This document shows, one piece after another, positions 29,723 to 55,473 of a stretch of 64,000 bases of DNA (position 1 is its first letter; each line of letters begins with the position of its first letter). This stretch comes from Halobacteriovorax sp. HLS (lineage in GTDB: Bacteria > Bdellovibrionota > Bacteriovoracia > Bacteriovoracales > Bacteriovoracaceae): positions 310,001-374,000 of the forward strand of contig NZ_QOCL01000014.1 in NCBI RefSeq assembly GCF_004006665.1, written 5' to 3'. Position numbers and translations under genes: made by a program. The notes under the pieces are model-generated. The model was not told the origin of the DNA, made no database searches, and saw nothing but the letters and a program-made list of their open reading frames with translations.

Positions 29723-32014
29723 TTACTCCTCTTCTGCCAGTAGCGCAGTTATATTACTCATATTTAAAATTTCTGAAACAGGTGCAGTTCTTTGTATAAT
29801 ATTAACAGTGTCTTTCATACTTACTAGAATAGGACCAATTGCATCTGCTTCACTTAACTGCTGTAGAAGTTTATAACTTATATTTGCAGAGTTAAGGTCT
29901 GGGAAAATTAAAATATCTGCCGGCCCTTTCATGTCTGAAAACTCAAATAACTTCTCTCTAATGAATCCATTTACAGCAACATCTGCTTGCATTTCACCTT
30001 CAACTTTAAGAGAAGGGTATCTTTCGTGACACAGCTTAACTGCTTTTTTCATTTTCTTCGCATTTGGATGTGAGTTCGAACCGAAGTTTGAAAAGCTCAC
30101 AAATGCAATATTAGGGTCTCTGTTAATAAGTTGCTTAAATAATTTAGCAGTTGATCTTGCGATATCGCAAAGATCTTCTGGAGTAGGTCTTACTTGCGCT
30201 GTAGTATCGGCCAAGAATAAAATTCTATTCTTGAAAATCATTATGTATACACCCGCAGCTTTTGTTCCTTCTTGAGTTCCTATCACATTAATAACAGGCT
30301 TGAAGCATTCGGGGTAACTAAGGGTTGGGCCAGATAGCATTGTATCTGCCATACCTTTTCTAACCATCATTGCTCCAAAGTAGTTCTCTTGGGCCATTTT
30401 ATCTTCTGCGTGATAAATACTAACTCCATCTCTTTGTTTCATTGAACAGTATTCTCTATAGAACTCTTGAAACTTTGGATGCTTAGACGGTTGAATAATC
30501 TCAATATCTTTAAGAGACTCTAGTCCAAGCTTATCCATACGAGCGTGAATGATTTCAGTTTTTCCTAGAAGAACTGGCTCGATTCTACCTTCTTCTCTTA
30601 AAATATTTACAGCTTCTAGAATTCTCGTATTTGCACCTTCGGCGAAAACAACTCTTGTCTTCTTGCCTTTTGCTTTTACCCTTGACGATAGTCTATCTCT
30701 TAAGCTCTTTAAGAATCTTGCTGAAGAGCCTAGTCTTTCTTCAAGATCTTTTGCGTATTCAAACATATCCTTTATAGGATTCTTGGCAACACCTGAATCC
30801 ATTGCGGCTTTAGCAACAGCAGGCGATACTCTTGTTAATACTCTTGTATCGAAAGGCTTAGGAATAAGGTATTCTCTACCAAAGTTAAACTCTTGACCGG
30901 AGTAGGCCATTTTAACTTCCTCAGGAACTTCTTCTCTTGCAAGATCAGCAAGGGCCTTAACGGCGGCAAGTTTCATTTCATCATTAATTTTAGTCGCTCT
31001 TACGTCGAGAGCACCTCTAAAAATAAATGGAAACCCTAGTACATTATTAACTTGATTAGGAAAATCACTTCTACCTGTCGCCATGATAACATCGTCACGA
31101 ACCGCTTTTGCTTCGTCAGGATAAATCTCTGGCTCTGGGTTTGCCATTGCAAATATGATTGGATCTTTGGCCATTGTTTTAACCATATCACCAGTGAGAA
31201 CGCCTCTAGCTGAACAACCAATAAATGCATCAGCATCAATCATTGCATCTGCTAAAGTTCTCTTCGTTGTTTCAGTTGCAAATTCTTCTTTATAACTATT
31301 CATTCCTTCAGTACGGCCCGTGTAAATTACACCTTTAGAATCACACATAAGAAGGTTTTCTTTTTTTACTCCAAGCTTGTAGAACAGTTTAGCACATGCC
31401 ATAGCAGCAGCTCCTGCACCACTAAAGACAACTCTCACGTGATCCATTTTCTTATTAGCAATTTCTACGGCATTTATAAACCCAGCAGAAGCAATAATGG
31501 CCGTTCCATGTTGGTCATCATGAAATACTGGGATATTCATTTTCTCAATAAGTTGCTTTTCAATTTCAAAACATTCTGGAGCCTTGATATCTTCTAGGTT
31601 TATTCCACCAAAAGTTGGCTCTAGAGCGCTAACGATATTTACCATGCCCTCAACTGTATTCTCATTAACTTCGATGTCGAATACATCAACATCTGCAAAT
31701 CTTTTAAAGAGGACACCTTTACCTTCCATTACAGGTTTACCTGCAAGAGCTCCGATGTCTCCAAGTCCGAGTACTGCAGTACCATTTGAAATAACAGCAA
31801 CAAGGTTGCCTTTACTGGTATACTTAAATGCCGCTTCAGGGTCTTTTGCAATTTCAAGACATGGAGCTGCTACACCTGGTGTGTATGCAAGAGAGAGGTC
31901 TTCCGCTGTAAGGCATGCCTTAGTTGGATTCACTTCAATTTTACCTGGTCTTCCTCCGCTGTGGTATGCGAGGGCCTGCTTATTTCTTTCTTCGTTTGTA
32001 GGTTTCGTAGTCAT
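29723..32014 (-). CDS. maeB: NADP-type malic enzyme with phosphotransacetylase-like domain
   Basis: Oxidative decarboxylation of malate to pyruvate. 763 aa with two parts. Residues 1-430 are the malic enzyme: [48 protein letters not shown] and the NAD(P) loop [10 protein letters not shown]. Residues about 435-763 are a phosphate acetyl/butyryltransferase-like domain that usually regulates rather than catalyses. This is the MaeB architecture. Together with ppc and sdh it connects C4 acids to pyruvate and acetyl-CoA. ridA and ydcF follow with gaps of two and one bases. Confidence 0.95.
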
Positions 32015-32128: not shown

Positions 32129-33556
32129 TTAAGCTTTTTTTATGGACTTAAAATAGAAAAATATCAGTAAAAGACCAGTCGTGGCCACACCAATATAGAG
32201 TTCATCCACATTTGCCCAGAATCCATGATGATTTGCGTTGCGCCAGTAGGATGTAGTAATGACTCCAGAAAGACATACTGCAACAAATTGATTGTCAGTT
32301 ATTCTGTTCGGAAATAGGTAACCAAAAAGAACAGGAAAGAGAAGACATGCAGCAGAGAGACTACCTAAAGTCTTCCAAACGGTTTTAATATCTCCATTAA
32401 AAACTTCGGACATAATAACTGCAATGACACCAACTAGCACAACACCTATGTGGTGAATTAGCGGATTATTCTTAAACTTTTTAGGAGCAAGGTCAAAGGC
32501 CAAGGTTGTGCCTGCCAAGAAAAGGTAAGAGTCGATGGTAGATAAGATTGTCGCTAAAATTCCCGCGAACATAAAGCCTCTTAATCCATTTGGAAGTAAT
32601 TGAGCCGCGTAAATTAAATATGCGTGAGCAGAGTCAGCTTCAGGAATAACTGCTTTAGCATACATTGCACCAAAGGTTGTACATATATCGAAACAGAACC
32701 AAATAAATGTAGAGATAAGGATACCTTTCTTAGCTGTTTTAGATGAGGTTGCAGCAAAACACCTTTGATAAAAGTTCGGGTCAACTAGAGTACTAAGCGC
32801 AATAAAGCCCCAGACAAAAGTGGTTGCGACACCTACTGTACCTGTTAGAGAAAAGTAGCTTTCAGGTAAATTAGTTTTTAAAAATGAAATTCCCCCAAAG
32901 TTAAAAACACTTAATCCTAAGATAAGGGCTACAGCTAAGCACATTACAAAGAACTGAACTAAATCAGAGAAAACAACTGCTCTAAAACCCCCCCACATAG
33001 AGTAGAGGAGTACAAAAGTTATTCCTATAGTTGTATTAACCCATAAACTTCCTCCAAAAATCATTTGAGAAAAAGTTCCAAGACTTATTGCATAGGCGAT
33101 AGGTAGAACATTGAAGAAATTAAAGACCGCGCTTAGCCTTTCTGATTTTGGACCAAACATTTTTCCAATAAGGTTAGGTAGTGTTAGCGCTTCATAGCTT
33201 TTAATTTTATCAATTAAGAAAAATGCGAAAATCAAATAGGCCACATACCAGAATGCACCTTGAGTAACAAAGTTGAATATTCCTTGATTGAATGCAATTT
33301 TAGTCACACCAAAAATACCACCGTACCAAGTTGCAACTAAAGTCGCTACGAAAAGAGGCAAGGTTAGTTGTCTTCCCATAAGTAATAGGTCTAAGTAGTT
33401 GTAGTCGTTTTCATCTTTATCAGTAGGCGTTTTCTTTTTTAAAGAATTTCCCCAGATTACACTTGCCGCCGTAAGTAGTAGAACTGCAGAAAAAATAACC
33501 CAATCTAAGGGGGTAATAATATCTACTAAATTTAATGTTGGTGAAAAATTTTTCAT
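32129..33556 (-). CDS. SSS-family sodium:solute symporter, probable thiamine or thiamine-precursor transporter
   Basis: 475 aa with about 13 hydrophobic segments in the SSS/PutP-like order (LFVATLVATWYGGIFG early, GGFRAVVFSDLVQFF in the middle, FAGILATILSTIDSYLFLAG later, the sodium-site region). The family name gives no substrate. A textbook TPP riboswitch directly before the start codon shows that expression is shut off by thiamine pyrophosphate, so thiamine, HMP or the thiazole moiety is the most likely cargo. SSS-type transporters under thi-box control (ThiV group) have been predicted before. It stands alone, with no thi biosynthesis genes in the window. Confidence 0.85.
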   Translation of the reverse strand: MKNFSPTLNLVDIITPLDWVIFSAVLLLTAASVIWGNSLKKKTPTDKDENDYNYLDLLLMGRQLTLPLFVATLVATWYGGIFGVTKIAFNQGIFNFVTQGAFWYVAYLIFAFFLIDKIKSYEALTLPNLIGKMFGPKSERLSAVFNFFNVLPIAYAISLGTFSQMIFGGSLWVNTTIGITFVLLYSMWGGFRAVVFSDLVQFFVMCLAVALILGLSVFNFGGISFLKTNLPESYFSLTGTVGVATTFVWGFIALSTLVDPNFYQRCFAATSSKTAKKGILISTFIWFCFDICTTFGAMYAKAVIPEADSAHAYLIYAAQLLPNGLRGFMFAGILATILSTIDSYLFLAGTTLAFDLAPKKFKNNPLIHHIGVVLVGVIAVIMSEVFNGDIKTVWKTLGSLSAACLLFPVLFGYLFPNRITDNQFVAVCLSGVITTSYWRNANHHGFWANVDELYIGVATTGLLLIFFYFKSIKKA

Positions 33557-33559
33557 CGA

Positions 33560-33634
33560 GTCTCCTTACGTCAGCATTACCTGAATCAAGTTATAGGGTC
33601 GAGTCATAAACTCCTCTCAGCCAAAAGCTCCCCT
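33560..33634 (-). promoter_or_regulatory. TPP (thi-box) riboswitch
   Basis: Read on the minus strand, the conserved aptamer parts occur in order: GGGGAGC, a short loop, GGCTGAGAG, ACTCGACCC, CTTGATTCAGGTAATGCTGA and CGTAAGGAGA. These match the thi-box blocks (GGGGxGC, CTGAGA, ACCC, CTGATxxGGxTAATxCC, GCGTAxGGA). The last block contains the AAGGAG ribosome-binding site of the SSS gene, six bases before its ATG. TPP binding should hide the Shine-Dalgarno directly, as in translational thi-boxes. Confidence 0.9.
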
Positions 33635-33697
33635 GATTAGTTGTAGGAAAGAAATAACTTTATTATAATGATTTATCAACAAAATTGGAGATTTTTC

Positions 33698-34642
33698 ATG
33701 ACATTAACTCAATTAGAATACGTTGTGGCCGTAAATAAACATCGCCACTTTGGTAAGGCAGCTAAAGAGTGTCATGTTACCCAACCAACACTGAGTATGC
33801 AGTTGCAAAAGTTAGAGGATGAATTAGGGGTTATTCTTTTTGATAGATCTAAATCACCCATTCTTCCTACTAGTGATGGAGAGAAGGTCGTTAAGCAAGC
33901 GCAGGTTGTGATTAAAGAATATAATAGAATTCATACAATCTTAGAGGATAATAACGGTCAGATCTCTGGTAAATTTCGACTTGCAGTAATTCCAACTCTT
34001 GCAGCTTATGTTATTCCATTATTTGCCAAGAAGTTCGCCGATTTATATCCGCAGGTAGAGCTTATTATTGAAGAATTTAAAACTGAAGAAATTATAGATC
34101 TTCTTGATAGGGAAGAGATCGACGCGGGAATATTAGTAACACCTCTTCATGAAGGAGCATTAATTGAGAGAGTGCTTTTCTATGAACCATTTCACTTATT
34201 TGTCTCACAAGATCATGAACTTTATAAGAAGTCTGAAATTCAAGAAAGTGAACTCTCTGATGAAAGTCTTTGGCTTTTGAACGAAGGTCATTGCTTTAGA
34301 GCACAGGTCTTGAAAGTTTGCTCAATGAACTTTGATGGAGGAAGCTATAAGAATTTGAGATTTGAATCGGGAAACTTAGAGACATTAAAAAATCTTGTCG
34401 TTCAAAGTTCAGGCTATACTCTCTTGCCTCACCTGGCGACACTTGATCTTAGCGCTGCAAGAAAGAAAATGGTTAAGCCATTTAGAAAACCTGTACCGAC
34501 TAGAGAAGTATCTATTGTCTATGGTAGAACATTCTTGAAAGAAAAAATTATAGATGCTTTAGAGGAATTAATTGTTTCTGTATTACCTAAAGAAATTCAT
34601 TCCCATAAAGGCGAAGAACTCTCTGTTGTTGAATTCAAATAG
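33698..34642 (+). CDS. oxyR: hydrogen-peroxide-sensing LysR regulator OxyR
   Basis: 314 aa counted from the ATG at 33698, which has GGAG eight bases upstream; an earlier in-frame ATG at 33668 has none. The N-terminal winged HTH (TLTQLEYVVAVNKHRHFGKA, TQPTLSMQLQKLEDELG) is followed by the regulatory domain. In the GHCFRAQVLKVC segment Cys199 and Cys208 fall at the same positions as the peroxide-sensing pair of E. coli OxyR. It should therefore form the activating disulfide and induce peroxide defence genes. No catalase or peroxiredoxin gene is adjacent. A GC-rich hairpin follows the stop codon. Confidence 0.93.
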   Translation: MTLTQLEYVVAVNKHRHFGKAAKECHVTQPTLSMQLQKLEDELGVILFDRSKSPILPTSDGEKVVKQAQVVIKEYNRIHTILEDNNGQISGKFRLAVIPTLAAYVIPLFAKKFADLYPQVELIIEEFKTEEIIDLLDREEIDAGILVTPLHEGALIERVLFYEPFHLFVSQDHELYKKSEIQESELSDESLWLLNEGHCFRAQVLKVCSMNFDGGSYKNLRFESGNLETLKNLVVQSSGYTLLPHLATLDLSAARKKMVKPFRKPVPTREVSIVYGRTFLKEKIIDALEELIVSVLPKEIHSHKGEELSVVEFK

Positions 34643-53661: not shown

Positions 53662-53739
53662 TGGTACTCCCAAGGGGATTCGAACCCCTGTTACCGCCGT
53701 GAAAAGGCGGTGTCCTAGACCGGGCTAGACGATGGGAGC
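53662..53739 (-). tRNA. tRNA-Glu (anticodon TTC), copy 1
   Basis: 78 nt cloverleaf: acceptor GCTCCCA with its partner strand, anticodon loop TTTTCAC on stem CCGCC/GGCGG, T-arm CAGGGGTTCGAATCCCCT and encoded CCA. Identical to the copy at 55304-55381. Confidence 0.95.
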
Positions 53740-53752
53740 ATAATTGAAAAAA

Positions 53753-53829
53753 TGGTGATCTCGCTGTGACTCGAACACAGGACCCTCTCCTTAAAAGGGA
53801 GATGCTCTAACCAACTGAGCTACGAGACC
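53753..53829 (-). tRNA. tRNA-Lys (anticodon TTT), copy 1
   Basis: 77 nt cloverleaf: acceptor GGTCTCG, D-arm TAGCTCAGTTGGTTAGAGCA, anticodon loop CTTTTAA, T-arm and encoded CCA. It is transcribed first in the Lys-Glu unit, 13 bases before tRNA-Glu. Confidence 0.95.
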
Positions 53830-55303: not shown

Positions 55304-55381
55304 TGGTACTCCCAAGGGGATTCGAACCCCTGTTACCGCCGTGAAAAGGCGGTGTCCTAGACCGGGCTAGACGATGGGAGC
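55304..55381 (-). tRNA. tRNA-Glu (anticodon TTC), copy 2
   Basis: Same 78-nt sequence as 53662-53739, with encoded CCA. Flanking bases differ from copy 1. Confidence 0.95.
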
Positions 55382-55396
55382 ACATTTTGAAAAGAA

Positions 55397-55473
55397 TGGT
55401 GATCTCGCTGTGACTCGAACACAGGACCCTCTCCTTAAAAGGGAGATGCTCTAACCAACTGAGCTACGAGACC
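55397..55473 (-). tRNA. tRNA-Lys (anticodon TTT), copy 2
   Basis: Same 77-nt sequence as 53753-53829. The Lys-Glu spacer is 15 bases here and unrelated to that of copy 1. Confidence 0.95.

What the first reader, a model, noticed from the sequence alone, without database searches (positions are those of the whole stretch)
32129..33634. TPP riboswitch controls an orphan SSS-family transporter and embeds its ribosome-binding site
The minus strand before the symporter gene carries all thi-box blocks in order, and the last block contains AAGGAG six bases before the ATG. This fixes the otherwise unknown substrate class of an SSS symporter as thiamine or a precursor. It also gives an unusually compact switch in which aptamer and Shine-Dalgarno are the same bases. 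No thi gene is nearby, so this may be the cell's salvage route.
Basis: partly seen in the sequence, partly recalled or inferred. Interest (0 to 1): 0.65.

Follow-up and report, generated by a model that had tools for sequence, protein, structure and literature searches.

The report
Vitamin-B1 riboswitch on a thiamine importer
A marine predatory bacterium that apparently cannot make vitamin B1 carries one vitamin-B1-sensing RNA switch, placed so that it can hide the ribosome landing site of a sodium-driven membrane transporter, which therefore very probably imports the vitamin; both the switch design and this kind of gene pairing are already known.

Summary
An Rfam TPP riboswitch (60.5 bits, cut-off 54.3) lies at 33644-33546 (-). 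AAGGAG at 33567-33562 is inside it, 5 nt (not 6) before the ATG of a 475-aa SSS/PF00474 symporter. It is the only TPP switch found in this Halobacteriovorax-type genome. ThiC, ThiD, ThiE and ThiL were not found there, though searches for the first three succeed in a congener; a thiamine pyrophosphokinase is present. HMP would be useless to this cell, so thiamine itself is the likely cargo. Comparative support: in 32 of 129 class genomes a TPP switch sits at the start of the orthologous gene, and helix P1, whose 3' strand begins with the last G of the Shine-Dalgarno, covaries. Orthologues in Bradymonadales and Cloacimonadota also carry the switch. In one genus without the symporter, a TPP switch precedes ykoE-type ECF genes at the same locus; YkoE and the symporter never co-occur (0 of 20 against 87 of 109). 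Transport and regulation are inferred, not measured.

The parts
33662..33667 (-). TATAAT, probable -10 box of the symporter promoter (no good -35 seen)
   Evidence: invariant in the alignment of five Halobacteriovorax-group loci; function inferred; not among the promoter scan's hits
33546..33644 (-). TPP riboswitch aptamer (RF00059, full length)
   Evidence: 60.5 bits, gathering score 54.3, E 2.2e-9; only one found in the genome
33635..33639 (-). 5' strand of aptamer helix P1 (UAAUC)
   Evidence: RF00059 alignment; P1 has double changes at all five pairs across 24 relatives
33558..33562 (-). 3' strand of P1 (GACUC); its first G is the last base of the SD
   Evidence: RF00059 alignment; 3 of 5 pairs are standard in this copy
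33562..33567 (-). Shine-Dalgarno AAGGAG inside the aptamer, 5 nt before ATG
   Evidence: sequence; purine-rich stretch conserved at the start of the linked genes
32129..33556 (-). SSS-family (PF00474) sodium:solute symporter, 475 aa; proposed thiamine importer
   Evidence: Pfam 7.5e-24; AlphaFold model pLDDT 81.7; Foldseek matches SGLT, CHT1, NIS and SiaT at probability 1.00; orthologues in 87 of 129 class genomes
33698..34642 (+). divergent LysR-family regulator (best NCBIfam model OxyR, below its cut-off); conserved neighbour, not shown to take part
   Evidence: start at MTLTQLEY inferred from relatives; neighbour conserved
29723..32014 (-). malic enzyme-phosphotransacetylase fusion, conserved downstream neighbour; co-transcription not tested
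   Evidence: synteny

Best explanation
A TPP riboswitch of the 'direct translation attenuation' type controls a thiamine:Na+ symporter that is the salvage route for vitamin B1 in an auxotrophic Halobacteriovorax-type predator. When TPP is scarce, the 3' part of the aptamer is loose, the AAGGAG pairs with 16S rRNA and the importer is made. Imported thiamine is turned into TPP by TPK. TPP then folds the aptamer, closes P1 and the core around the GGA and hides the SD, and synthesis of the importer falls. Shown here by sequence: the aptamer, the SD inside it and its conservation, the SSS fold, failure to detect a usable biosynthetic pathway, a TPK candidate, and the swap with YkoE-type ECF genes. 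Inferred: ligand binding, translational control, Na+ coupling, thiamine as substrate.
For: Aptamer hit, single in the genome. No ThiC, ThiE, ThiD or ThiL in G000 (PF02581 only a partial hit at 22 bits). The ThiC, ThiE and ThiD searches find ThiC and a ThiDE fusion in congener G044, which also has a TPP switch before ThiG-like and ThiH-like genes (named from their sequence). TPK in G000. In 32 class genomes a switch lies at the start of the SSS orthologue with the start codon close to the aptamer end; four thiC switches (L009, L011, L012, L017) lie 47-71 nt before their start. P1 covaries at all five pairs. TPP switch also before orthologues in Bradymonadales L132 and Cloacimonadota L098, L101, L104, with a second, divergent switch at several Cloacimonadota loci that precedes a TonB-receptor-like gene where read. 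YkoE and SSS never co-occur, 0 of 20 against 87 of 109; in genus g4 the switch plus ykoE and two further ECF-type genes sits beside the same LysR and malic-enzyme genes.
Against: No uptake, binding or expression data. P1 of this copy has only 3 of 5 standard pairs, and thermodynamic folding without ligand does not return the aptamer (z 0.84). The TPK match is weak: PF04263 31.0 bits against 30.7, TIGR01378 39 against 76.4. Many SSS orthologues have no adjacent switch, and Elusimicrobia orthologues had none at the gathering cut-off. Three SSS-bearing genomes also have ThiC. The genome is a draft in 16 contigs.
Confidence: 0.82

Rival explanations
1. The symporter is a ThiV-type importer of the precursor HMP, as proposed for SAR11, under the same riboswitch.
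For: ThiV of SAR11 is a TPP-switch SSS protein linked to HMP uptake (PMC11452348).
Against: G000 has no detectable ThiD or ThiE to use HMP and has a TPK; of the 87 SSS genomes 84 lack both ThiC and ThiE.
Confidence: 0.1
2. The symporter carries another solute and TPP control only matches its expression to TPP-dependent metabolism.
For: SSS proteins carry many substrates; pairwise sequence similarity to solved SSS proteins is weak; the downstream neighbour is malic enzyme-PTA, not a thi gene.
Against: The pairing with TPP switches recurs in several phyla, the gene is mutually exclusive with YkoE, and no other known B1 importer was found in G000: no YkoE, no PnuC, and a ThiB-model hit only below cut-off.
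Confidence: 0.06
3. The switch acts by transcription termination or Rho rather than by hiding the SD.
For: Such mechanisms are known for other TPP switches; there are no RNA data here.
Against: The aptamer reaches the ATG, leaving no room for a terminator, and the scan finds none between aptamer and gene; the SD lies in the aptamer in relatives too.
Confidence: 0.12

Closest known systems
ThiV/SSSP sodium:solute symporters under TPP riboswitches (SAR11, Methylobacillus, algae; PMC4260697, PMC11452348)
   Same: SSS/PF00474 transporter with its own TPP switch, in cells with incomplete B1 synthesis
   Different: SAR11 keeps enzymes that use HMP and is thought to import HMP; here neither ThiD nor ThiE was found and thiamine is the likely cargo. 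Sequence relation to ThiV was not tested.
Dur31/SSSQ thiamine transporters of fungi (PMC5997356, PMC4260697)
   Same: SSS (solute carrier 5) family, TPP switch; Dur31 shown to transport thiamin
   Different: Eukaryotic; the switch there controls splicing, not ribosome access
Direct translation attenuation TPP riboswitches (Barrick and Breaker 2007, PMC2258182)
   Same: RBS within the conserved purine-rich 3' part of the aptamer, no extra expression platform
   Different: [quoted passage not shown] here in Bacteriovoracaceae and relatives
YkoEDC ECF-type transporter
   Same: Downstream of a TPP switch with SD next to or in the aptamer end, beside the same neighbouring genes in genus g4
   Different: Unrelated ABC/ECF machinery; replaces the symporter rather than accompanying it

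Membership tests
TPP riboswitch (RF00059) | covariance-model score above the gathering cut-off over the full model | tested here: met
   60.5 against 54.3 bits, positions 1-105
TPP riboswitch (RF00059) | helices supported by covariation | tested here: met
   24 related switches: 88% of cells paired, 11 of 17 pairs with change on both sides, 0/500 shuffles reach this; sliding the partners lowers all measures
TPP riboswitch (RF00059) | binds TPP and changes expression | not testable with these tools
   needs in-line probing and reporter assays
Direct translation attenuation type | RBS inside the aptamer core, start codon immediately after | tested here: met
   AAGGAG 33567-33562, ATG at 33556; conserved in relatives
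SSS family (PF00474) | Pfam SSF domain above cut-off and the fold of solved SSS proteins | tested here: met
   84.8 bits against 22.8; Foldseek probability 1.00 to SGLT2, CHT1, NIS, SiaT
SSS family (PF00474) | sodium coupling | not testable with these tools
   S339/T340 fall in the stretch that aligns with the SS pair of vSGLT; no assay
ThiV/SSSP HMP-thiamin symporters | own TPP switch in a B1-salvaging cell | tested here: met
ThiV/SSSP HMP-thiamin symporters | signature residues Y78, D139, F254 in SiaT numbering (PMC11452348) | not tested
   no SiaT or ThiV sequence was obtained; SiaT did not appear or 70
ThiV/SSSP HMP-thiamin symporters | falls in the SSSP/SSSQ clade | not tested

The most novel reading that the evidence does not exclude
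This is a bacterial SSS clade, spread over Bacteriovoracaceae, Cloacimonadota, Elusimicrobia and others, that imports thiamine itself rather than HMP, works with a TonB receptor under its own TPP switch in some lineages, and is exchanged in place for YkoEDC in others.
Probability: 0.6. Interest if true: 0.42.

Novelty: new member of a known kind. Interest (0 to 1): 0.3.

Why it matters
It assigns a likely substrate to a widespread unannotated symporter clade, predicts that most of these predatory bacteria depend on thiamine from prey or water, and shows one vitamin importer traded for an unrelated one at the same locus under the same RNA control.

Tried and rejected
An upstream UUUCCU that pairs with the SD in the unliganded fold was rejected as a general anti-SD, because it is not conserved in four relatives. 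ThiL-model and ThiB-model hits in the class were mostly far below cut-off and not counted; the partial PF02581 hit in G000 (22 bits) is not counted as ThiE. RNAalifold alone does not call P1; it was counted explicitly instead. The published SiaT-numbered signature could not be tested. The plasmid search gave only distant SSS proteins, under 32% identity in the rows listed.

Full report
What is there. On the minus strand, a full-length TPP aptamer (RF00059, 60.5 bits, gathering score 54.3, E 2.2e-9) covers 33644-33546. The ORF 33556-32129 encodes a 475-aa SSS protein. AAGGAG at 33567-33562 runs from the 3' strand of the last stem into P1; its last G is the first base of the 3' strand of P1. Five bases separate it from ATG. 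A TATAAT at 33667-33662 is invariant in five close loci, so the transcript probably starts just upstream of the aptamer (inference).

Organism. The closest named relative of the symporter locus is Halobacteriovorax marinus isolate 36_234_T64 (81% identity); its contig of 587193 bases has exactly the length of contig C15 of G044, a congener of G000. The window is therefore from a Halobacteriovorax-type predator; its own name is not known.

Is it chance? No. In 129 genomes of the class, 62 have a TPP hit and 87 have an orthologue of the symporter. In 32 genomes, own copy included, a switch lies at the start of that gene, the start codon estimated within or next to the model's 3' tail in each; a few of these switches score below the gathering cut-off. 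Fifteen of them, the window's included, were read directly and all show the purine-rich SD-like stretch at the aptamer end. In an alignment of 24 such switches, P1 has compensating changes at all five pairs and the whole structure has 51 double-change cells, which none of 500 shuffles reaches. In this copy, P1 keeps three of five standard pairs.

How it probably works. The aptamer overlaps the ribosome site, so no further expression platform is needed: TPP binding would hide the SD. Four thiC switches of the class, by contrast, sit 47-71 nt before their start codon (L009, L011, L012, L017). The direct design is described for TPP switches in PMC2258182. That TPP does this here is inferred.

What is carried. 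G000 gave no hit for ThiC, ThiE, ThiD or ThiL; a wider ThiE family gives only a partial hit of 22 bits. The ThiC, ThiE and ThiD searches do find ThiC and a ThiDE fusion in congener G044, which also has a TPP switch before genes that I name ThiG-like and ThiH-like from their sequence. G000 has a weak but above-cut-off TPK (PF04263 31.0 bits against 30.7; the stricter NCBIfam model is not met). A cell with TPK and none of the others can use thiamine, not HMP or thiazole. Absence rests on profile searches of a 16-contig draft, so divergent enzymes cannot be excluded.

Independent comparative evidence. YkoE is found in 20 class genomes and none of these has the symporter, while 87 of the other 109 do (Fisher 3.6e-12 for genomes, which are not independent; 7.5e-4 for no overlap at genus level). 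In genus g4 (L069) a TPP switch precedes ykoE and two further ECF-type genes, between relatives of the malic enzyme and LysR genes that flank the symporter here. Outside the class, TPP switches precede orthologues in Bradymonadales (L132, 70.6 bits) and Cloacimonadota (L098, L101, L104, near the cut-off). Many Cloacimonadota loci have a second, divergent switch; at the four where a gene could be read (L091, L099, L101, L113) it looks like a TonB-dependent receptor by sequence. That was not checked against Pfam; only class members L002 and L016 were, and they match the TonB plug domain.

Protein. An AlphaFold model (pLDDT 81.7; low confidence at residues 69-80) matches SGLT2, CHT1, NIS and SiaT. 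The stretch ILST aligns with the serine pair of vSGLT, compatible with Na+ coupling. The HMP/thiamin signature residues of PMC11452348 were not tested.

What is known already. ThiV/SSSP in SAR11 and Methylobacillus, SSSP/SSSQ in algae and fungi (PMC4260697; PMC11452348) and Dur31 of Candida, shown to be a thiamin transporter (PMC5997356), are SSS proteins under TPP switches. The present case adds a predator lineage, a thiamine rather than HMP reading, and replacement by YkoE-type ECF genes at one locus. Novelty is modest.

Noticed in passing
53662-53829 and 55304-55473 (-): A tRNA-Glu/tRNA-Lys pair is duplicated about 1.64 kb apart, nearly identical (96-99%), with two ORFs in between.
   Followed up: partly
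33668-34642 (+): The divergent LysR/OxyR-like ORF probably starts at 33698 (MTLTQLEY), not at the first ATG 33668; the relative in L069 begins with this motif.
   Followed up: partly
L002, L003, L004, L005, L007, L008, L016, L029: Several class genomes have a TPP switch before a long ORF that looks like a TonB-dependent receptor; L002 and L016 match the plug domain, the others were judged from sequence only.
   Followed up: partly
L069 734-3417: ykoE (PF09819) with two further ECF-type genes behind a TPP switch, directly before a relative of the window's LysR gene: in-place replacement of one importer by another.
   Followed up: yes
L066, L067 (G044): One congener keeps ThiC, a ThiDE fusion and ThiG/ThiH-like genes behind TPP switches, while the other four genomes of the genus, G000 included, have no detectable ThiC, ThiD or ThiE.
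   Followed up: partly
L068 6134-6721 (G000 C13): A 195-aa ORF is largely AKKATKKV-type lysine/alanine repeats, resembling a histone H1-like tail.
   Followed up: no
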